From: JBHIER01 sp046760705 [NCBI: bacterium]
GTDB lineage: Bacteria; JBHIER01; G020348925
DNA length: 6,561 bases
Assembly (NCBI GenBank): GCA_046760705.1
Contig: JBHIER010000197.1
Location: 1-6,561 of the forward strand
Direction: 5' to 3'
This document shows, piece after piece, positions 1 through 6,561 of this stretch (position 1 is its first letter; every line of letters starts with the position of its first letter). Made by a program: the position numbers and the translations under genes. The notes below the pieces were generated by a model that made no database searches, had not been told where the DNA came from, and worked only from the letters and a program-made list of their open reading frames with translations.

Positions 1-202
1 GTTGGCCCAAGAGATCAGTAACAAAGCCCCCATCGCCATTGGGTTGATCAAAAAATGCGTCAATGTCGGATTGGAGACAGATTTGAAGGCAGGCTGCACC
101 TTTGAATCTCTACAATTTGGGGCGGTTTGCACCACCGAAGATAAAGCTGAGGGGACGAAGGCGTTTCTGGCGAAGAGGAAGCCGGAATTCAAGGGAAAAT
201 GA
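1..202 (+). CDS. Enoyl-CoA hydratase/crotonase family protein, C-terminal fragment cut by the window edge
   Basis: Only the last 66 or so residues are visible; the gene begins left of the window, so no start codon is assigned (reading frame from base 2). The tail carries the usual crotonase C-terminal pattern: a helix with APIAIGLIKK, then E...FG.VCTTEDKAEGTKAFLAKRKPEFKGK, where the D-x-x-EG-x-x-AF-x-x-KR-x-P-x-F signature is typical of enoyl-CoA hydratases. Family members hydrate 2-enoyl-CoA thioesters in the cytoplasm, in beta-oxidation or butyrate-type fermentation. The catalytic glutamates and the oxyanion-hole glycines lie upstream and cannot be checked, so another crotonase-fold reaction is possible. 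The gene ends at TGA 200-202 and is separated from the next gene-like sequence by about 380 non-coding bases, so it probably belongs to a different transcription unit from the por operon. Confidence 0.88.
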   Translation, partial: LAQEISNKAPIAIGLIKKCVNVGLETDLKAGCTFESLQFGAVCTTEDKAEGTKAFLAKRKPEFKGK

Positions 203-321: not shown

Positions 322-420
322 CCTGTCATTCACGCGTGTTTACTTGCTTAAACTATGCGGGTGAGAGCTTAGCAGGAATCTCCAGATGAGGAGATTCCGA
401 AACACGTTCGGAATGACAGG
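322..420. repeat. Palindromic repeat element with 10-bp terminal inverted repeats (MITE/REP-like)
   Basis: CCTGTCATTC at 322-331 is the exact reverse complement of GAATGACAGG at 411-420, enclosing 79 bases. Inside, GGAATCTCC (375-383) pairs perfectly with GGAGATTCC (390-398) around a 6-base loop. Elements built from GGAATCTCC...GGAGATTCCG...GGAATGACAGG resemble dispersed non-coding palindromic repeats seen in many bacterial genomes. No transposase is present here, so any mobility would be in trans. Whether other copies exist in this genome cannot be seen from one window. Confidence 0.6.
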
Positions 421-452
421 TGGTAGTGATCGGAATGACAGGTGGTGGTGAG
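409..452 (+). repeat. Two tandem copies of a 22-bp unit
   Basis: Bases 409-430 and 431-452 are two head-to-tail copies of CGGAATGACAGGTGGTRGTG plus two more bases, differing at 2 of 22 positions. The first copy includes the right inverted-repeat arm of the palindromic element. The following bases (AGCAGGAGATTGCGAA, 451-466) echo the element's AGCAGGAATC...GAGATTCCGAA with the hairpin removed. This looks like slippage or partial duplication of the element's right end. Confidence 0.75.
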
Positions 453-515: not shown

Positions 516-553
516 GTTGTAACAAAGTTGTTGACCAACAGGTTTGTTACAAC
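516..553. promoter_or_regulatory. Perfect 11-bp inverted repeat, likely operator or 5'-leader hairpin
   Basis: GTTGTAACAAA (516-526) and TTTGTTACAAC (543-553) are exact reverse complements separated by 16 bases. The centre carries a further GTTG/CAAC mini-dyad (530-533 and 536-539). The dyad begins right after the candidate -10 box and ends 28 bases before the ATG at 582. That position suits a repressor site overlapping the transcription start, or a hairpin in the leader. No regulator for it is recognisable in the window. Confidence 0.5.
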
Positions 554-581: not shown

Positions 582-833
582 ATGAGTTTTAAAAGTTCAA
601 ATCCAGTCAGATCTGAAGCTTTTTTCAATCGTGGGGAGGAGTTGAAAAGATTGCTGAATGCGGTCGAAAGATTGAGAAAAGGGGCGGTAAAATGGTTTTT
701 GCTGCTGGGACAGAGGAAGATTGGAAAGACCAGCCTCTTGTATGAGTTTGAAGGCCGATTGCCTCAGGATATCTTCTCCGCCCACAGTGACTGTTGGGAG
801 AGTGCAAAAGAGGACGGCTGCCTTTTTATTTGA
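582..833 (+). pseudogene. N-terminal fragment of an archaeal-type (STAND/AAA-like) ATPase
   Basis: From ATG 582 the frame encodes 83 residues, of which about the first 73 look genuine. The N-terminal F-x-NR-x-EEL-x-x-L pattern (residues 14-24) and the P-loop GQRKIGKTS (43-51, Walker A GxxxxGKT) are typical of the archaeal ATPase family PF01637, whose full members are usually several hundred residues long. The DCWES stretch (near bases 789-803) still looks family-like, after which the frame loses similarity and ends at TGA 831-833. Walker B, sensor and C-terminal domains are missing, so the product cannot be a working ATPase. The downstream C-terminal piece is in another reading frame, which points to an internal deletion or frameshift near base 800. 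The gene retains a candidate promoter and dyad upstream. Confidence 0.65.
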
Positions 834-1024
834 AGAAATCCACGGTTGAGGAGTTGCCATTCTGGGCCAAAAAATTGAATTGGATTCCGGTGGTAGCTTT
901 GGACTCCGAGGAGAGAGTAAATTTCTATCGAATTGAAGATTTGAGAATGACCGAGAAGCATAGGGTTGTTGATGAGGGCTCGGCCAGGATTGATAATATG
1001 CTGGAACTGGTTTACGCCTGGTAA
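791..1024 (+). pseudogene. C-terminal remnant of a PD-(D/E)XK-like nuclease domain
   Basis: This frame opens at 791, after an in-frame TGA at 788-790, and runs to TAA 1022-1024, giving about 77 codons with no ribosome binding site or good start. It begins LLGECKRGRLPFYLKKS, where E-C-K looks like the E-x-K half of the PD-(D/E)XK active site. What follows (VEEL, hydrophobic-PVVAL, NFYRIEDL) resembles the C-terminal half of Hjc-type Holliday junction resolvases and related nucleases. The preceding D motif and N-terminal half are absent. It may be the other end of the same gene as the ATPase fragment, since some archaeal ATPases carry a C-terminal nuclease-like DUF234 domain, or the tail of a separate nuclease gene. 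Which one cannot be settled by eye. The last part also contains the candidate promoter for the por operon. Confidence 0.45.
969..997 (+). promoter_or_regulatory. Candidate promoter for the porA-porB-IPMS-aminotransferase operon
   Basis: TTGATG (969-974, 4 of 6 to the -35 consensus) and GATAAT (992-997, 5 of 6 to the -10 consensus) are separated by 17 bases and lie 69 bases before the porA start. They sit inside the tail of the nuclease remnant. No other gene drives the operon from the left, so a promoter in roughly this place is expected. The evidence is consensus matching only. Confidence 0.4.
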
Positions 1025-1066
1025 ACACTTAGGAGATGTGGCTAATGCAAAGGAGACCATCACCTT

Positions 1067-2218
1067 GTGAAGAAAATAATGACAGGAAACCATACAGTTT
1101 CGCATGCTGTCAAGCTGGCCAGAGTTGAGGTGATTGCAGCTTATCCCATTACGCCACAGACGAGCGTGGTGGAGAAGTTGTCGCAATGGTGCGCCACAGG
1201 TGAGTTGAGTGCTCGGTTTATCAAGGTGGAGTCTGAGCATTCGGCCATGGCCGGTTGTGTTGGCGCATCGGCTGCTGGTGCCCGCGCATTTACCGCCACC
1301 AGCGCCCAGGGTTTGGCCCTCATGCACGAACTTCTGCACTGGGCCGCAGGAGCCAGATTGCCCATTGTGCTGGCCAATATCAACAGAGCCATGGCCGCCC
1401 CCTGGACCATCTGGTGCGATCAGAACGATAGTTTGTCTCAAAGGGATACCGGCTGGCTCCAATTCTATTGCGAAAGCAACCAGGAGGTTCTTGACTCAGT
1501 GATCCAGGCATATAAAATCTCCGAAGAGATTTTGCTGCCGAGCATGATCCTTATGGACGGTTTCTTCCTCTCCCACACCGTGGAGCCTGTCGATCTGCCG
1601 GATATTGAGCTTGTCGATCAGTATCTGCCCCCACGGGAGGCGGAATACATTTTGGATGTGGATGATCCCCATACTTTTTACGGCGGCACGACTCCTCAGC
1701 TCTATTTGGAGATGAGGTATAAAATTCAACAGGCCATGGAGCAAGCCAGAGAGGTGGCTAAGAAGGCTGATGAGGAGTTTGCTCGAACTTTCGGTCGGAA
1801 ATACGGTCTGGTGGAGTCCTATCGAACTGAGGATGCAGATGCAATTTTGGTGGCTTCAGGCACTGTGGTTGGGACCACCCGGGGGGTGGTGGATCGATTG
1901 CGGGATAAGGGCGAAAAAGTGGGGCTGGTAAAGATTCGGATGTTTCGACCCTTCCCGACTGAAGAGATACGAGATCTTTTCAAACCCACCAGCAAAGTAG
2001 GCGTCATCGATAGAAACATCTCTTTCGGCCATTCGGGCATTTTTTACCAGGAGATCAAGTCGGCGCTGTGTAATGAGCCCGAGCGCCCGCTGCTTTTCGG
2101 CTTTATTGCCGGTTTAGGTGGCAGAGATGTGACCGAGAATGTGATCGAAGAGGCTTTCGATTATGTGGCCCGACATGACCAACCGGAGGACATCATTTGG
2201 TTGGATTTAAAGCGATAG
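1067..2218 (+). CDS. porA: 2-oxoacid:ferredoxin oxidoreductase, alpha subunit (PorA-like)
   Basis: PorA-type alpha subunits work with beta, gamma and delta subunits to decarboxylate pyruvate or another 2-oxo acid oxidatively, giving acyl-CoA, CO2 and reduced ferredoxin in the cytoplasm. The 383-residue product has the usual PorA length. It has the N-terminal thiamine-diphosphate pyrimidine domain with YPITPQT (26-32) and VESEHSAM (54-61; Glu57 is the expected cofactor-activating glutamate), then TSAQGLALMHE and SQRDTGW. A transketolase-C-like domain starts near RTEDAD (253), and GLGGRDVT lies near the C-terminus. The start is GTG 1067, with AAAGGAGA (1049-1056) ten bases upstream; ATG 1079 is a weaker alternative. 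The C-terminus overlaps porB by 22 nt. The family is clear, but whether pyruvate, a branched-chain or an aromatic 2-oxo acid is used cannot be read from sequence. No gamma domain is fused to it. Confidence 0.93.
   Translation: MKKIMTGNHTVSHAVKLARVEVIAAYPITPQTSVVEKLSQWCATGELSARFIKVESEHSAMAGCVGASAAGARAFTATSAQGLALMHELLHWAAGARLPIVLANINRAMAAPWTIWCDQNDSLSQRDTGWLQFYCESNQEVLDSVIQAYKISEEILLPSMILMDGFFLSHTVEPVDLPDIELVDQYLPPREAEYILDVDDPHTFYGGTTPQLYLEMRYKIQQAMEQAREVAKKADEEFARTFGRKYGLVESYRTEDADAILVASGTVVGTTRGVVDRLRDKGEKVGLVKIRMFRPFPTEEIRDLFKPTSKVGVIDRNISFGHSGIFYQEIKSALCNEPERPLLFGFIAGLGGRDVTENVIEEAFDYVARHDQPEDIIWLDLKR
2185..2199 (+). promoter_or_regulatory. Ribosome binding site that sets the TTG start of porB inside porA
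   Basis: GGAGGA (2185-2190) stands six bases before TTG 2197-2199, within the last codons of porA. No ATG or GTG in frame gives an N-terminus ahead of the cluster-binding CPGC motif with a comparable binding site. The overlap implies translational coupling of the two subunits. Confidence 0.65.
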
Positions 2219-3090
2219 ATCACAGAGTACCGGCGGAGGAGCTGCTCTCATCCGGGCACACCGCCTGCCCTGGATGCGGGGAGACTCTTTCTCTTCGGTT
2301 GGCCCTAAAGGCTTTGGGCAAACGCACCATTTTGGTCATCCCTGCCTGTTGCGCGGCTGTGGTTGACGGCATGTTTCCTCATTCATCGTCGAGAGTTCCC
2401 CTGCTACACACCGCTTTTGAAACCACCGCCTCAGCCGCCGTAGGAGTTAGAGCAGGATTGGAGGCGCGCGGCGTAAAGGATGTGACTGTGCTGGCCTGGG
2501 GAGGCGATGGGGCCACATTTGACATTGGATTTGGGGCTCTGTCAGGGGCGGTGGAGAGAAATGAGGACATTTTATACGTCTGCTATGACAACGAGGCTTA
2601 CATGAACACGGGCATTCAGCGAAGCTCAGCTACCCCCTGGGGTGCGTGGACGGGGACTACACCGGTGGAGCAGCCCAAGGACCGGCCCAAAAAGAATATG
2701 GTCGAAATATTGGCTGCTCACAAAATCCCTTATGCGGCCACTGCCAGTGTTGCCTTTCCAGAGGATTTCATTGGCAAGCTGCAAAAGGCCAAAAAGATGA
2801 AAGGTGCCCGCTTTGTCCACATCTTCTCCCCCTGTCCCAGCGGATGGAAGACACCCTCGGAGATTTCGATCAAATTGGCCAGACTGGCGGTGGAGACGAG
2901 GATGTTTCCACTGTATGAGGTGGAGGACGGGAGAAAATATACCCTAAATAAAGAACCCGAAGGTATCCCAGTGGTTGAGTATCTGAAACTCCAGGGGCGG
3001 TTCAGACACCTGGGCAAGAGGGAGATCGAGATCATTCAAAAAAATGTGGATGAAGAGTGGGAGGAACTGCTCACGAAAGTGGGAAGATGA
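2197..3090 (+). CDS. porB: 2-oxoacid:ferredoxin oxidoreductase, beta subunit (PorB-like)
   Basis: The beta subunit carries the diphosphate half of the thiamine-diphosphate site and the proximal [4Fe-4S] cluster that passes electrons towards ferredoxin. The 297-residue product has CPGC (Cys24, Cys27), a third cysteine in PACCAAVV (Cys52 by position) and a fourth in FSPCPSGW (Cys213), so all four expected cluster ligands are present. The Mg/ThDP motif is complete: GDG at 103-105, then DNEAYMNTGIQRSS with Asn132 and MNTG 136-139. GAWT and PKDRPKKN follow, as in archaeal PorB. It starts at TTG 2197, overlapping porA by 22 nt, and its TGA overlaps the ATG of the next gene (ATGA). The active site looks intact. 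The partner gamma and delta subunits are not encoded in this window. Confidence 0.93.
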   Translation: MVGFKAIDHRVPAEELLSSGHTACPGCGETLSLRLALKALGKRTILVIPACCAAVVDGMFPHSSSRVPLLHTAFETTASAAVGVRAGLEARGVKDVTVLAWGGDGATFDIGFGALSGAVERNEDILYVCYDNEAYMNTGIQRSSATPWGAWTGTTPVEQPKDRPKKNMVEILAAHKIPYAATASVAFPEDFIGKLQKAKKMKGARFVHIFSPCPSGWKTPSEISIKLARLAVETRMFPLYEVEDGRKYTLNKEPEGIPVVEYLKLQGRFRHLGKREIEIIQKNVDEEWEELLTKVGR

Positions 3091-4325
3091 AAGAACTGAA
3101 TGAAAAAGAGTTAATTTACGACTGGAACCAGGGGACAGAGGAGCGTGTCCAGGAAAAGGCGATCGAGTTTGACGATGAGACTCTAAGGGACGGGATTCAG
3201 TCTCCGTCGGTAACAGACCCCAAGATCGAGGAAAAGATTCAGATTTTACACCTCATGGACGATTTAGGGATTCAGGGGGTGGACATCGGGCTGCCGGGTG
3301 CCGGGCCCAGGGCTCAGGAAGATGTCTATTCTTTGGCTAAGGAGATCGTTGACGCCAAACTTAAGATCAAACCTAACTGCGCTGCCAGGACGCTGAAGGT
3401 GGACATCGATCCGATAATCGATATTTCCCAAAGGGCCGCTATTCCCATTGAGGCCTCTGTTTTCATCGGCTCCAGTCCCATCCGCCAGTATGCTGAGGGT
3501 TGGACCCTGGATGGGATGCTCAAACACACCGAGGAGGCGGTGGGCTATGCCATCAGTCATGGACTATCGGTGATGTATGTCACCGAAGATACCACTCGTT
3601 CTGCCCCGGAGACGATTCGCAAGCTGTACACCACGGCCATCGAGTGCGGGGCGCGCCGCATCTGTGTGTGTGATACGGTGGGTCATGCCATAGCCGAGGG
3701 AGTGAAGAAGTTGATCGGTTTTGTCCGAGAAGTGGTGGCCAAAACCGGAGAAGATGTGAAGATCGACTGGCACGGCCACCGGGACAGGGGACTGTCGGTG
3801 CCCAACACCATAGCCGCTATCGCCGCCGGAGCCGACCGGGTGCACGCCACGGCCCTGGGCATCGGCGAGAGAGTGGGCAATACGCCGATGGATATCCTTT
3901 TGGTCAATCTGAAATTGCTGGGCTGGATAGATCAGGATTTGACCCGATTGCCCGAATATTGTAAATTGGTCTCGGCAACCTGTAAGGTTCCCATTCCCGA
4001 AAATTATCCGCTCATCGGGGAAGATGCTTTTCGAACTGGAACAGGAGTTCATGCTGCGGCGGTTATCAAAGCCGAAAAGAAGGGGGATGCCTGGCTGGCA
4101 GATCGAATTTATTCTGCTGTGCCGGCCGGGATGTTTGGACTCCAACAGAAGGTTGAGATCGGTCCCATGAGCGGTGAGTCCAATGTGATCTATTGGCTTC
4201 AGAAGAGAGGAATTGAACCGACCCCCGATTTGGTGGAGCGCATATTCAATGCGGCCAAGGCGTCGCAGAAGATTCTCACGAGTGAAGAGATAATTGGTAT
4301 TGTCGAATCCGGGAAGGGAGAATGA
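3087..4325 (+). CDS. 2-isopropylmalate/homocitrate synthase-like DRE-TIM metallolyase
   Basis: Enzymes of this family condense an acyl-CoA with a 2-oxo acid to give a 2-alkylmalate (isopropylmalate, citramalate, homocitrate); some members are lyases. The 412-residue product has the TIM-barrel signature DETLRDGIQS (30-39; Arg34 and Asp35 are the expected catalytic and metal residues), the metal-binding HGH (229-231), GADRVHATALGIGERVGN, and an IPMS-like FRTGTGVHAAAVIK segment. Full-length LeuA has a leucine-binding regulatory domain; this protein is about 100 residues too short to include one. Two motifs differ from ordinary LeuA: GIQ instead of GEQ/GNQ, and HGHRDRG instead of HCHNDLG. It may therefore be a separate subfamily with another substrate. 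The start is ATG 3087 (ATGA overlap with porB); GTG 3057 would add ten residues. Substrates are not identifiable, but the por and aminotransferase neighbours supply or consume 2-oxo acids and acyl-CoA. Confidence 0.85.
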   Translation: MKELNEKELIYDWNQGTEERVQEKAIEFDDETLRDGIQSPSVTDPKIEEKIQILHLMDDLGIQGVDIGLPGAGPRAQEDVYSLAKEIVDAKLKIKPNCAARTLKVDIDPIIDISQRAAIPIEASVFIGSSPIRQYAEGWTLDGMLKHTEEAVGYAISHGLSVMYVTEDTTRSAPETIRKLYTTAIECGARRICVCDTVGHAIAEGVKKLIGFVREVVAKTGEDVKIDWHGHRDRGLSVPNTIAAIAAGADRVHATALGIGERVGNTPMDILLVNLKLLGWIDQDLTRLPEYCKLVSATCKVPIPENYPLIGEDAFRTGTGVHAAAVIKAEKKGDAWLADRIYSAVPAGMFGLQQKVEIGPMSGESNVIYWLQKRGIEPTPDLVERIFNAAKASQKILTSEEIIGIVESGKGE

Positions 4326-4326
4326 G

Positions 4327-5649
4327 ATGAATGACGATGTCCCTTTTAGCCGTGGTACGGTAGACAACATAATCGAGGAGAGCCGTGTCGACTTAAGCCG
4401 CGCCTCGATCAGGGAGATGAATCGGGTGGTGAACAAGATCGAGAGGGAGCTGGGTACCGAATTCATCCGCCTGGAATTTGGGATCCCCGGTCTGCCCGCC
4501 TCAAACATCGGTATCAACGCCGAAATTTACGCTCTGACAAAAGAGGGGGTGGCCTCAAGATATGCCCCTTTTGACGGGATTCCCCGGTTGAAAAAGGCAA
4601 CGGCGGAGTTCGTCAAGAAGTTTCTCAACCTCGATGTTGGACCTGAGTGCTGCATACCCACCGTCGGAAATATGCAGGGAGGGTTTCTGAGCCAGGCCAT
4701 TGCCGGCCGCCTGGACAGAAGGAGAAACACCATCCTGCACATCGACCCCGGATTTTCCGTGAACAAGAGCCAGGCCCGATTCCTGGGTTTGGAGACCGAC
4801 TCCATCGATTTCTACCAGATGCGGGGACCGAAACTTATCGCTGTCTTGCGGCAGAGACTGGCGAAGGGCGACGTCGGTGGGGTGCTGTGGTCCAGCCCCA
4901 ATAATCCGACATGGATTGTCTTCACCGATGAGGAGTTGAAGGATATGGGTGAGTTGTTCAATGAGTATGAAGTGGTAGCTATTGAGGATGTGGCTTACCT
5001 CTGTATGGACTTTCGCCAGGATTACAGCAGACCGGGGCAGGAGCCCTACCCCCCGACCATTGCCCATTATGCGGACAACTCCTTTGTCTTGATCAGTGCT
5101 TCGAAGATCTTCAGCTACGCCGGGCAGCGGGCGGCCGTGACCATCATCTCGCCGAAATTCATTCGTAAAGAGTATGAGGGTCTTGAGGAGTATTTTGGGA
5201 CCAGGCGCATCGGCGAAGCCTTTGTCCAGGGAGGGATGTATCCCACCACCTCCAGTGTTCCTCAGGGGCCGCAGCATGCGCTGGCAGCCCTGTTTGAGGC
5301 GGCCAGTTCGGGAGAATACGATTTTGTGAAGCCTTTGAGGGAGTATGGCAGAAGGGCGAATCATATGAAGAAAGCTTTCACGGCTCATGGATTTAAGTTG
5401 GTGTATGATTGGGACTTGGACAGACCCCTGGCCGATGGTTTCTATTTCACCTTCTCTTATCCAGGATTTTCAGGGGTCGAGCTTTTGAGGGAGATGATCT
5501 ATTATGGAGTGAGTGCCACTACCCTGAACATCACTGGTAGCATAAGGGCGGAAGGCTTGCGGGCCTGCGTCTCCCTTACTGGAGAAGATAGGTTCGACGT
5601 GCTCGATTACCGCTTGAAGCGATTTCACGAAGATCACCCACTTGATTAG
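4327..5649 (+). CDS. Class I/II PLP-dependent aminotransferase (fold type I)
   Basis: The enzyme is expected to exchange an amino group between an amino acid and a 2-oxo acid in the cytoplasm. The 440-residue product has the full active-site set: the N-P-T motif in SSPNNPTW (Asn193), the cofactor-binding Asp221 and Tyr224 in IEDVAY, the Schiff-base lysine Lys260 in ISASKIFSYAGQR, and the carboxylate-binding arginine Arg412 in GLRACVSL. Spacing is close to aspartate aminotransferase (Asn194, Asp222, Tyr225, Lys258, Arg386). The N-terminal half carries RLEFGIPGLP and ASRYAPFDGIPRLK, as in alanine/aromatic-type aminotransferases. The usual NPNNPTG has W after NPT, which is atypical. The start is ATG 4327, with AGGGAG (4315-4320) six bases upstream and only one base after the previous stop. 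The amino donor cannot be inferred. It ends the operon's confident coding part. Confidence 0.9.
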   Translation: MNDDVPFSRGTVDNIIEESRVDLSRASIREMNRVVNKIERELGTEFIRLEFGIPGLPASNIGINAEIYALTKEGVASRYAPFDGIPRLKKATAEFVKKFLNLDVGPECCIPTVGNMQGGFLSQAIAGRLDRRRNTILHIDPGFSVNKSQARFLGLETDSIDFYQMRGPKLIAVLRQRLAKGDVGGVLWSSPNNPTWIVFTDEELKDMGELFNEYEVVAIEDVAYLCMDFRQDYSRPGQEPYPPTIAHYADNSFVLISASKIFSYAGQRAAVTIISPKFIRKEYEGLEEYFGTRRIGEAFVQGGMYPTTSSVPQGPQHALAALFEAASSGEYDFVKPLREYGRRANHMKKAFTAHGFKLVYDWDLDRPLADGFYFTFSYPGFSGVELLREMIYYGVSATTLNITGSIRAEGLRACVSLTGEDRFDVLDYRLKRFHEDHPLD

Positions 5650-5677
5650 GTTCGTGCAAAAAGAGAGGAGGCATCTC

Positions 5678-5880
5678 ATGGCAATCTCCTTGGAAAAAGT
5701 CGAAAAAGAATTGGGTATACCAAAAGATCAGATTATAAAGGAAGGACTTCAACGGTTTTTAGAGATGGAGTTGAAAAACCTATCGGCGGAGATCTTGATG
5801 ACTTAACAAAACTTGAATATTTAGAGATTGAAAAAGAGAAGGTGGGTAAAATTCTTAAGGAGGTCATTAAGGAAAGTCAC
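5678..5880 (+). pseudogene. Frame-broken small protein resembling an antitoxin
   Basis: A strong AGAGGAGG site (5664-5671) precedes ATG 5678 by six bases, 28 nt after the aminotransferase stop. The frame gives a 42-residue peptide, MAISLEKVEKELGIPKDQII followed by KEGLQRFLEMELKNLSAEI, then stops at TAA 5804-5806. From about 5791 a different frame continues with DLDDLTKLEYLEIEKEKVGK and ILKEVIKE. Small proteins in thermophilic archaea and bacteria, often beside toxin genes, have both halves in this order (helical N-terminus ending in a ...LxxxxAEI segment, then a linker, then an acidic LEYLE...K stretch). This is from memory and is not verified. The simplest reading is an internal deletion or frameshift near 5790. 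Alternatively the 42-residue peptide is still made, since its translation signals are intact. Confidence 0.45.
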
Positions 5881-5980
5881 TTAAGTGATGTTCCAAAAGA
5901 GGTCTTTAAAGTTGGCGCAAATTCGACCCGAGGTCTGAGGCATAAAAAGACTTGCTCTCCAATGTTATTTTTTATAAATT
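5881..5980. other. Undecided stretch between the antitoxin-like and HerA-like remnants
   Basis: No single frame is convincing. The frame of the second antitoxin half stays open to TGA 5980-5982 but becomes unlike protein after about 5900. Another frame shows KFDPRSEA, a stop, then KDLLSNVIFYKLNSLDRW up to TAG about 6001-6003, which reads like real but broken coding sequence. I see no RNA gene, terminator or clear promoter here. Confidence 0.35.
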
Positions 5981-6091
5981 GAACTCCTTAGATCGCTGGA
6001 TGTAGGGCAGGCTTTGGTATCCAACACCGAAGTGGACAGAGCCTTTCTGATGGATGTGAGGCCAAGAGTCAGCGTCCACGGAGGATTTTGA
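5978..6091 (+). pseudogene. C-terminal tail of a HerA/DUF87-type DNA-translocating ATPase
   Basis: About 37 codons are open from 5978 (after an in-frame TAA at 5975-5977) to TGA 6089-6091. They read ELLRSLDVGQALVSNTEVDR, then AFLMDVRPRVSVHGGF. The pattern LxxLxxGxALV...VxVRPR.S.HGG is what HerA-like hexameric ATPases (DUF87) show at their extreme C-terminus, where the segment completes the fold after the RecA-like core. The whole ATPase core is missing upstream, so this is only a remnant. Its stop overlaps the next start (TGATG), showing that the two genes formed an operon before the 5' part was lost. Assignment rests on a short segment, so another P-loop ATPase family remains possible. Confidence 0.45.
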
Positions 6092-6561
6092 TGACTACCC
6101 TCAGAGTCTTCGACCACACAAACCGATCCATGCAGAGGTTGGGATATCTGAAATACCTCACCTGGCGATGCTCGCTCAGTGACGCGTCAAACCTGGATGC
6201 TCTGGGAAGGAATTTGATCAATACAGTAGCTAAAAGAATCCAGGTAGAACTCAATCCACATTTGAGCGAATATGTTCAGAGGCGCCTTACCGACCGCATT
6301 TACAAAAATTTACGGGAGACTGTTAAGAAGATTGGGAAAGGTCGTGAAGAACAGAGAACCATTCCCATAGAGCTTCAAGATGTGTATCTGGCCTCAAACG
6401 AGCTCGCTTCAAGAACAGGGAAGCTGGTTTCCGAGGATTGGCGTAAATATCCATACTTTCTATCATCTTTAGGGCTCGTACGTAAAGGAACCTATTCTCT
6501 GCTTGTTCGAGGGAACGTCTTCCTCCAATTGGTCTCCAAAAATGAGATCGACGCTTTCGGA
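6091..6561 (+). CDS. Unrecognised protein, N-terminal 157 residues, gene runs off the right edge
   Basis: The frame is open from ATG 6091 to the window end without a stop. GGAGGA (6080-6085) stands five bases upstream, and the ATG overlaps the stop of the HerA-like tail (TGATG), so translation was coupled to that gene. I do not recognise the family. The visible part is mostly helical and rich in Arg and Leu. Residues about 50-85 are strongly basic. After a short IPIELQDVYLAS stretch (near 91-102), the segment WRKYPYFLSSLGLVRKG...YSLLVRG (about 117-137) looks like a winged-helix end, with a recognition helix followed by a beta wing. HerA-type genes are usually followed by a nuclease such as NurA or another defence partner. 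This protein does not show a NurA motif in the visible part, so that link is only contextual. No signal peptide or membrane segment is seen. Confidence 0.7.
   Translation, partial: MTTLRVFDHTNRSMQRLGYLKYLTWRCSLSDASNLDALGRNLINTVAKRIQVELNPHLSEYVQRRLTDRIYKNLRETVKKIGKGREEQRTIPIELQDVYLASNELASRTGKLVSEDWRKYPYFLSSLGLVRKGTYSLLVRGNVFLQLVSKNEIDAFG

What the first reader, a model, noticed from the sequence alone, without database searches (positions are those of the whole stretch)
1067..5649. Compact operon: 2-oxoacid oxidoreductase core, IPMS-like enzyme and aminotransferase
Four genes are packed with a 22-nt overlap, a 4-nt overlap and a 1-nt gap, so they are very probably co-transcribed and coupled. 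Their expected chemistries all meet at a 2-oxo acid: transamination, oxidative decarboxylation to acyl-CoA, and acyl-CoA/2-oxo acid condensation. Ordinary leucine-type operons would contain leuC/leuD/leuB, and por operons would contain porG/porD; neither set is here. This could be an undescribed amino acid or 2-oxo acid conversion route, or a way to make an unusual alkylmalate.
Basis: partly seen in the sequence, partly recalled or inferred. Interest (0 to 1): 0.65.

Follow-up and report, generated by a model that had tools for sequence, protein, structure and literature searches.

The report
Aromatic-degradation operon with leucine-type enzyme
Four tightly packed genes, which in their closest known relative sit inside a gene cluster for breaking down benzene-ring compounds without oxygen, probably lengthen the side chain of an aromatic amino acid by one carbon so that it can be trimmed to benzoyl-CoA; the chemistry is inferred from gene context and has not been tested.

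Summary
The block is real: PorA-like, PorB-like, LeuA-like (HMGL) and aminotransferase genes, with 22-nt overlap, 4-nt overlap and 1-nt gap. The same four genes occur in 1 of 80 loci found with the LeuA-like protein: L001, a 5.0-Mb Gemmatimonadota chromosome. There the block follows bzd-type benzoyl-CoA reductase, beta-oxidation and Kor genes, and precedes LeuC/LeuD/LeuB-like genes. The LeuA-like enzyme is below the cut-off of all 24 NCBIfam models hit. Its relatives recur beside oah (ring-opening hydrolase of the benzoyl-CoA pathway), leuC/leuD, 2-oxoacid:ferredoxin oxidoreductases and thiolases. Leucine synthesis is unlikely: IlvD is absent from 7 of 8 linked genomes. One pocket residue (Ala99, 78 of 78) matches HphA, which elongates phenylpyruvate. 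Best guess: arylpyruvates are lengthened, decarboxylated to arylpropionyl-CoA and beta-oxidised to benzoyl-CoA. The aromatic context is fairly secure; substrate, direction and mechanism are inferred. No window genome is held, and the window itself shows neither benzoyl-CoA reductase nor leuCDB genes.

The parts
2..202 (+). C-terminal end of an enoyl-CoA hydratase gene
   Evidence: PF00378, 29.0 bits over cut-off 27; 79% identical over 66 aa to the hydratase upstream of the block in L001
1067..2218 (+). PorA-like alpha subunit (POR_N + PFOR_II) of a 2-oxoacid:ferredoxin oxidoreductase, 383 aa
   Evidence: PF01855, PF17147; PorA_Arch 527.1 bits, under the 550 cut-off; 75% identical in L001
2197..3090 (+). 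PorB-like beta (TPP) subunit, 297 aa, TTG start overlapping PorA by 22 nt
   Evidence: PF02775; NF008818 VorB-type beta 410.1 over cut-off 405, PorB 368.7 under 405; same overlap in L001
3087..4325 (+). LeuA/homocitrate-synthase-like condensing enzyme (HMGL-like) of a distinct family with Ala99 in the pocket, 412 aa
   Evidence: PF00682; below cut-off of all 24 NCBIfam models hit; AlphaFold model pLDDT 93.4, best match homocitrate synthase 6ktq Z 44.4; family alignments
4327..5649 (+). PLP-dependent class I/II aminotransferase, 440 aa, related to P. gingivalis 3g0t (organism recalled)
   Evidence: PF00155 55.4 bits; 3g0t 406.3 bits; 76% identical in G001, no match at E <= 1e-30 in 50 other genomes

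Best explanation
The block is part of an anaerobic aromatic-catabolism locus of an uncultured bacterium related to Gemmatimonadota bin29. Most likely mechanism, 'homologate, then beta-oxidise': (1) the aminotransferase turns an aromatic amino acid (Phe or Tyr) into an arylpyruvate; (2) the LeuA-like enzyme condenses it with acetyl-CoA to 2-benzylmalate; (3) LeuC/LeuD- and LeuB-like enzymes (adjacent in the relative, not in this window) give 2-oxo-4-arylbutanoate; (4) PorAB, probably with the gamma and delta subunits encoded upstream in the relative, decarboxylates it to 3-arylpropionyl-CoA and reduced ferredoxin; (5) acyl-CoA dehydrogenase, hydratase, hydroxyacyl-CoA dehydrogenase and thiolase cut this to benzoyl-CoA and return the acetyl-CoA; (6) benzoyl-CoA reductase uses product and ferredoxin. 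Shown: the gene block, its context in L001, the family's recurrent neighbours, the pocket residues. Inferred: every substrate, the direction, and subunit sharing. Placement in aromatic catabolism I hold at about 0.8; the confidence below is for the full mechanism.
For: L001 order on one strand: bzdN, bzdO, activase, bzdQ (N, O, Q over cut-offs), had-like, two HBD, ECH, delta/KorABG-like, PorAB, LeuA-like, AT, LeuC-, LeuD-, LeuB-like. The window keeps the ECH end in the same relative place. oah over cut-off in 19 of 50 genomes of the family and in 0 of 14 controls; in 14 of those 19 it lies within 8.2 kb of the LeuA-like gene, and in 7 of these the aligned stretches are only 30-56 bp apart. The window enzyme lies in a supported clade of 11, of which 7 have oah or had within 8 kb. 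At least one beta-oxidation gene type in 34 of 79 loci, thiolase in 24. IorA in 10 of 79 loci, KorA in 9, LeuD in 11. Ala99 in 78 of 78, aligned with Leu of IPMS and His of homocitrate synthase; HphA has Ala there and acts on phenylpyruvate (PMC12961565, abstract and passages). LeuD loop residue is Ala or Cys in 10 of 11 loci, Leu in the other. 3-Phenylpropionyl-CoA to benzoyl-CoA by beta-oxidation is described (PMC5109826, passages).
Against: Only 1 of the 5 HphA pocket positions matches (Ala99); His253 (80 of 80) is as in homocitrate synthase; Met163, Val165 and Cys193 match none of the three enzymes. 45 of 79 loci show no beta-oxidation type in view, and 31 of 50 genomes have no oah over cut-off. 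G006 and G008 have the enzyme, but their only LeuC-like matches are long, aconitase-sized frames. PorAB scores do not single out an aromatic substrate: PadG scores are 321 (window), 315 (L001 block), 319 and 302 (two other PorA of G001). The aminotransferase was found only in the window and G001 among 51 genomes searched, with 43-47% relatives in Bacteroidales. The window shows neither benzoyl-CoA reductase nor leuCDB genes. No acyl-CoA dehydrogenase was seen in the L001 locus. Thiolase and hydratase genes are common in such genomes; my control was only five stretches, 77.5 kb, from two genomes.
Confidence: 0.38

Rival explanations
1. The module runs in the opposite direction (one-carbon shortening): phenylpyruvate is carboxylated by the LeuB-like enzyme, isomerised by LeuCD and cleaved by the LeuA-like enzyme to phenylglyoxylate and acetyl-CoA; PorAB oxidises phenylglyoxylate to benzoyl-CoA.
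For: Same gene context. It would replace the Pad route; in Desulfococcus multivorans, which lacks padB and padEFGHI, the step from phenylglyoxylate to benzoyl-CoA is called unclear (PMC5109826, passages). PorAB has some similarity to PadG/PadI.
Against: Against the usual energetics of this condensation (own knowledge). PadG/PadI scores are about the same for other PorAB of the same genome. It leaves the neighbouring thiolase and beta-oxidation genes without a role in side-chain removal.
Confidence: 0.13
2. A leucine or isoleucine/citramalate biosynthesis operon with an atypical LeuA, the 2-oxoisovalerate coming from isobutyryl-CoA by reductive carboxylation through a VOR-like PorAB.
For: LeuC-like (TIGR02083 662.6 over 610.65) and LeuB-like (NF002898 450.5 over 393) pass leucine models. 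G001 has no other PF00682 match. PorB passes the VorB-type beta model. KARI is present in 6 of 12 genomes, G003 included. The aminotransferase would fit.
Against: IlvD absent in 7 of 8 linked genomes and KARI absent in 6 of 12, controls 14 of 14 each; Ala99 instead of the IPMS Leu; repeated placement beside oah; in G004, G007, G009, G010 and G011 a second, stronger PF00682 protein has LeuC- or LeuB-like genes beside it and looks like the ordinary LeuA.
Confidence: 0.15
3. An alternative oxidative TCA arm (Re-citrate synthase or homocitrate/2-oxoadipate chemistry) whose 2-oxo acid feeds KorABG to reduce ferredoxin for benzoyl-CoA reductase.
For: KorABG-like genes lie beside the block, and benzoyl-CoA reductase needs reduced ferredoxin (own knowledge). 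Re-citrate synthases are LeuA-like and often misannotated (PMC12016533, passages). His253 is as in homocitrate synthase. G002 has no Si-citrate synthase match.
Against: Si-citrate synthase found in 11 of 12 genomes, G001 included. The Arg of homocitrate synthase that PMC12961565 places at the substrate side chain aligns with Met163. Homocitrate synthase models: 195.7 against a cut-off of 413.55 and 177.6 against 462.9.
Confidence: 0.14
4. The family has some other substrate shared by all members (including lone-gene members in Acidobacteriota, Gemmatimonadota and Myxococcota), and the aromatic clusters only recruited it.
For: 45 of 79 loci show no beta-oxidation neighbour; enzyme present in genomes without oah over cut-off (31 of 50) and without a LeuC-sized homologue (G006, G008); residues 99, 126, 165 and 253 invariant across the members that cover them.
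Against: Aromatic-linked members fall in separated parts of the tree; the label needs at least 5 changes, so the link was kept or gained repeatedly.
Confidence: 0.2

Closest known systems
HphA homologation pathway of phenylalanine and tyrosine (cyanobacteria)
   Same: LeuA-like condensing enzyme with Ala at the key pocket position (PMC12961565, passages); LeuC/D/B-type partners beside it in relatives; transamination to an arylpyruvate
   Different: Here with 2-oxoacid:ferredoxin oxidoreductase and benzoyl-CoA genes, in a catabolic context; the four other pocket positions differ
Leucine biosynthesis leuABCD
   Same: Homologous enzyme types
   Different: No IlvD or KARI match in the single-contig chromosome of the closest relative; Ala99; below all LeuA cut-offs
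Archaeal POR/VOR (cores that share one gamma subunit, recalled for Pyrococcus)
   Same: Two-subunit alpha/beta core of the archaeal type; in L001 next to one gamma-like and one delta-like gene
   Different: Those gamma/delta-like genes are of the Kor/OGOR type and absent from the window; sharing is not shown
Pad pathway (PadBCD, PadEFGHI) from phenylacetate to benzoyl-CoA
   Same: Would serve the same purpose, linking phenylalanine to benzoyl-CoA (PMC5109826, passages)
   Different: A condensing enzyme with LeuCDB-like genes instead; whether PadBCD is present elsewhere in these genomes was not searched
bzd-type anaerobic benzoyl-CoA degradation cluster
   Same: bzdN, O and Q over cut-offs upstream of the block in L001; oah elsewhere in that genome
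   Different: Carries the added 2-oxo-acid module, not mentioned in the listings

Membership tests
2-isopropylmalate synthase (LeuA) | Scores over a curated LeuA model | tested here: not met
   Best 221.2 bits against cut-off 517
2-isopropylmalate synthase (LeuA) | Leu at the side-chain pocket position (as in 3rmj, 3ewb, 3eeg) | tested here: not met
   Ala99 in 78 of 78 members that cover it
2-isopropylmalate synthase (LeuA) | Genome has IlvC and IlvD to supply 2-oxoisovalerate | tested here: not met
   Both absent in G001; IlvD absent in 7 of 8 and KARI in 6 of 12 genomes; controls 14 of 14 each. Tested in relatives, not in the window's genome
Homocitrate synthase | His and Arg at the substrate side chain (6ktq) | tested here: not met
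   Ala99 and Met163 at the aligned positions; a further His-type position is kept (His253)
HphA (benzylmalate synthase) | Five pocket residues Ala, Asp, Ala, Met, Ser | tested here: not met
   1 of 5 equal: Ala99, Met163, Val165, Cys193, His253; of these positions only Ala73 was found important for selectivity in that paper
HphA (benzylmalate synthase) | Condenses phenylpyruvate with acetyl-CoA | not testable with these tools
   Needs an assay
Re-citrate synthase | Makes citrate from oxaloacetate; replaces Si-citrate synthase | tested here: inconclusive
   Si-citrate synthase found in 11 of 12 genomes; no Re-citrate synthase sequence was available to compare
LeuA-like condensing enzymes (superfamily) | Catalytic Arg, Asp, HxH metal site and C-terminal subdomain | tested here: met
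   R34, D35, H229, H231 invariant (roles recalled); near full-length match to 6ktq, Z 44.4, rmsd 2.2 over 377 residues
2-oxoacid:ferredoxin oxidoreductase, archaeal POR/VOR type | Alpha with domains I and II, beta with TPP domain | tested here: met
   Pfam domains over cut-off; beta passes NF008818; alpha is under its cut-offs
2-oxoacid:ferredoxin oxidoreductase, archaeal POR/VOR type | Gamma and delta subunits encoded nearby | tested here: not met
   Not seen in the window; in L001 Kor-type gamma-like and delta-like genes precede PorA, both under cut-offs
Anaerobic benzoyl-CoA degradation locus | Benzoyl-CoA reductase genes in the same cluster | tested here: inconclusive
   Met in L001: bzdN 499.5, bzdO 709, bzdQ 445.9, all over cut-off; none visible in the 6.6-kb window

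The most novel reading that the evidence does not exclude
An undescribed catabolic strategy: anaerobes degrade aromatic amino acids by first lengthening the arylpyruvate with a leucine-pathway-type module (LeuA-like, LeuCD, LeuB), then oxidatively decarboxylating to arylpropionyl-CoA with a ferredoxin enzyme and beta-oxidising to benzoyl-CoA, with acetyl-CoA acting catalytically. It would bypass the Pad route and be spread across several uncultured phyla.
Probability: 0.33. Interest if true: 0.8.

Novelty: new variant of a known kind. Interest (0 to 1): 0.6.

Why it matters
A widespread LeuA-like enzyme family that fits none of the curated models would gain a testable function in anaerobic aromatic catabolism. 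In Desulfococcus multivorans, which grows on phenylacetate and phenylpyruvate without padB and padEFGHI, the last step to benzoyl-CoA is called unclear (PMC5109826, passages); whether that species has this enzyme was not tested, but the gene set here offers a concrete candidate for a Pad-free route. It also shows leucine-type genes in genomes that lack IlvD, which would mislead automated predictions of amino-acid synthesis.

Tried and rejected
Leucine operon: rejected as the main reading, because IlvD and KARI are missing in the closest relative and oah/bzd genes recur nearby. Re-citrate synthase and homocitrate synthase: weakened by pocket residues and the presence of Si-citrate synthase. AAA-type lysine pathway, my first guess for the neighbours: dropped once NCBIfam named several of them as bzd/oah genes. 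Phenylglyoxylate-specific PorAB: not supported, PadG/PadI scores do not separate the paralogues. A search for the aminotransferase across the phylum of G001 reached one genome only, because no kinship is told for genomes reached through loci. Plasmid collection: 30 records with a match, the best three 43-47% identical in Bacteroidales; the two that I viewed lie beside yqgE/algH, no help. Rfam: nothing over gathering score in the window. Structure search: LeuA, homocitrate and methylthioalkylmalate synthases all match the model, so the fold does not choose a substrate. Ten paper searches on the gene combination: no listed paper describes it, but only part of the hits was listed in five of them (20 of 37, 15 of 48, 25 of 69, 10 of 74 and 12 of 21). 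I opened four papers by passages; PMC7324539 has no link.


Full report
Observation. The window holds four + strand genes: PorA-like 1067-2218, PorB-like 2197-3090, LeuA-like 3087-4325 and aminotransferase 4327-5649, with a 22-nt overlap, a 4-nt overlap and a 1-nt gap. Pfam domains confirm each. No genome is held for the window, so everything outside it comes from relatives.

Distribution of the block. A search with the LeuA-like protein in genome contigs gave 80 loci (146 stretches matched a pattern; 80 is also the most that a call returns). The full four-gene block is in 1 of 80, L001, on a 5.0-Mb Gemmatimonadota chromosome record, at 75-77% identity and with the same 22-nt and 4-nt overlaps. 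DNA similarity covers 1066-5639, and again 26-211, where the window carries the end of the enoyl-CoA hydratase that precedes the block in L001. The aminotransferase was found in G001, the genome of L001, and not in 50 other genomes of the family at E <= 1e-30.

Context in L001. Reading along the strand, with a few unassigned ORFs left out: MarR-like protein (named by eye), bzdN (499.5 bits over 453.8), bzdO (709 over 448.6), an activase (222.8 over 125.4), bzdQ (445.9 over 380.2), an 844-aa NAD(P)/FeS oxidoreductase-like protein (under all cut-offs), a had-like dehydrogenase (260.5, under 338.65), two 3-hydroxybutyryl-CoA dehydrogenases, enoyl-CoA hydratase (by similarity to the window's PF00378 fragment), a small two-cluster ferredoxin (OGOR delta-like, 64.3, under 125), KorA (511.6 over 411), KorB-like and KorG-like (under cut-offs), then PorA, PorB, LeuA-like, aminotransferase, LeuC-like (662.6 over 610.65), LeuD-like (230.7, under 245.85; passes the LeuD/DmdB subfamily model) and LeuB-like (450.5 over 393). 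The oah gene lies elsewhere in that genome, near thiolase-, SDR- and hydratase-like genes. G001 has two other PorAB sets, each with gamma- and delta-type partners beside it, those of one set named by eye only; so the block's PorAB is an extra core that may share the Kor gamma and delta subunits. Sharing is inference.

Context in the family. Among 50 genomes of the family, 19 have oah over its cut-off; 0 of 14 controls do. In 14 of these 19 oah lies within 8.2 kb of the LeuA-like gene (loci L002, L003, L004, L015, L016, L017, L018, L022, L046, L049, L051, L053, L061, L069); in seven of them (L002, L003, L004, L015, L016, L018, L022) the two aligned stretches are 30-56 bp apart. In the other five (G001, G026, G034, G038, G042) oah is elsewhere or on another stretch. 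In 79 loci (L080, a 31% match, left out), within flanks of up to 8 kb: LeuD-like in 11, LeuC-like in 7, LeuB-like in 12 (6 of them at only 34-36% identity), IorA in 10, KorA in 9, had in 7. Thiolase, 3-hydroxyacyl-CoA dehydrogenase, hydratase or acyl-CoA dehydrogenase: at least one type in 34 of 79, at least two in 17, none in 45; thiolase in 24. The query proteins came from these loci and from G001, and the control was small: five stretches, 77.5 kb, from two genomes, none found. Many loci are cut by contig ends, so counts are lower bounds. In G009 LeuC and LeuD lie about 10 kb downstream of the LeuA-like gene.

Tree. The window and L001 pair (95/70) and lie in a supported clade of 11 rows (99/93), 7 of which have oah or had within 8 kb; the label needs at least 5 changes, so it occurs in separated parts of the tree. 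The window protein falls below the curated cut-off of all 24 NCBIfam models it hits.

Pocket. Alignments with solved enzymes put Ala99 (78 of 78 members that cover it) at the position of Leu in IPMS (3rmj, 3ewb, 3eeg) and His in homocitrate synthase (6ktq). PMC12961565 (abstract and passages) reports Ala73 at this position in HphA and shows that changing it to Leu raises activity with the IPMS substrate. At the other four positions discussed there I place, by these alignments, Met163 (61 of 80), Val165 (80 of 80), Cys193 (54 of 80) and His253 (80 of 80); none equals HphA, and His253 equals homocitrate synthase. The Arg of homocitrate synthase aligns with Met163. LeuD neighbours carry Ala or Cys in 10 of 11 loci where the eleventh, and a LeuD beside a second LeuA-like protein in G011, have Leu; the absence of a homoaconitase-type Arg in this loop is judged from a recalled motif. 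Together this favours a bulky, non-acidic side chain, but it is not a substrate assignment.

Leucine and amino-acid supply. G001 has one PF00682 match, this enzyme; so have 5 more of 12 genomes. KARI is absent from 6 of 12, G001 included, and present in 6, G003 included. IlvD is absent from 7 of 8, both single-contig chromosomes G001 and G003 included; controls 14 of 14 in each case. Prephenate dehydratase is absent in 10 of 26, G001 and G003 included, while G001 has chorismate synthase and G003 has not. Most genomes are metagenome bins, so single absences may be gaps. Such organisms probably take up amino acids; this fits amino-acid catabolism but would also allow an anabolic use of the module.

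Mechanism. The forward reading: arylpyruvate plus acetyl-CoA to benzylmalate, LeuCD, LeuB, ferredoxin-linked decarboxylation to arylpropionyl-CoA, beta-oxidation to benzoyl-CoA with return of acetyl-CoA. The last part is described for 3-phenylpropanoate in Desulfococcus multivorans, and the same paper calls the step from phenylglyoxylate to benzoyl-CoA there unclear; its authors assign a dehydrogenase, hydratase and thiolase induced by phenylacetate and phenylpyruvate to phenylglyoxylate formation, and an induced IorAB to phenylpyruvate (PMC5109826, passages). Energetic statements are my own knowledge. The reverse reading, leucine synthesis, an alternative TCA arm and an unrelated shared substrate remain open with the weights given.

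What counts against. 45 of 79 loci show none of the beta-oxidation types, 31 of 50 genomes have no oah over cut-off, G006 and G008 have no LeuC-sized homologue, no acyl-CoA dehydrogenase was seen in the L001 locus, and the window has no benzoyl-CoA or leuCDB gene in view. The exact block is known from two lineages only. PorAB sequence scores do not point to an aromatic substrate. Four of five pocket positions differ from HphA.

Novelty. Ten paper searches of the held library listed no paper that describes a LeuA-like enzyme in a benzoyl-CoA locus; in five of them only part of the hits was listed, no preprints are held and most subscription papers are missing. I rate it a new variant of a known kind: known enzyme families in an apparently undescribed combination.

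Noticed in passing
window 582-1024: Remnant of an AAA ATPase gene: an 83-aa ORF with a weak AAA_16 match (29.7 bits, under cut-off 32.6), then a second ORF in another frame; between hydratase and PorA, where L001 has delta-like and KorABG genes. Looks like a decayed gene.
   Followed up: partly
window 516-553: Inverted repeat with 18-nt arms, 2 nt apart, 89% complementary, just before the ATPase remnant; operator-like.
   Followed up: no
window 408-451: Two tandem copies of a 22-nt unit (95% alike), perhaps a dispersed intergenic repeat.
   Followed up: no
window 6088-6561: ORF of 158 aa or more running off the window with no Pfam match; the flanks 203-1066 and 5650-6561 are about 44% G+C against 54% in the block.
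   Followed up: no
L159 (G001): Aconitase-like, LeuC-like and LeuD-like genes beside a citrate lyase alpha gene (citF 511.9 over 501.45), a separate citrate-lyase-like cluster.
   Followed up: partly
for example L005-L010 and L024-L037: Many members of the LeuA-like family in Acidobacteriota, Gemmatimonadota and Myxococcota have the same invariant pocket residues but no pathway genes that I recognised beside them. Function unexplained.
   Followed up: partly
L049, L051, L053, L057, L061, L068, L069: LeuA-like gene followed by IorA (and, where the contig goes on, KorA/KorB) and facing a PrpF-like isomerase, a thiolase-like gene and a 4-hydroxybenzoyl-CoA reductase-like enzyme; possibly a tyrosine-type version of the locus.
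   Followed up: partly
G001, G003: Single-contig chromosomes without IlvD and prephenate dehydratase matches; G003 also without chorismate synthase.
   Followed up: partly
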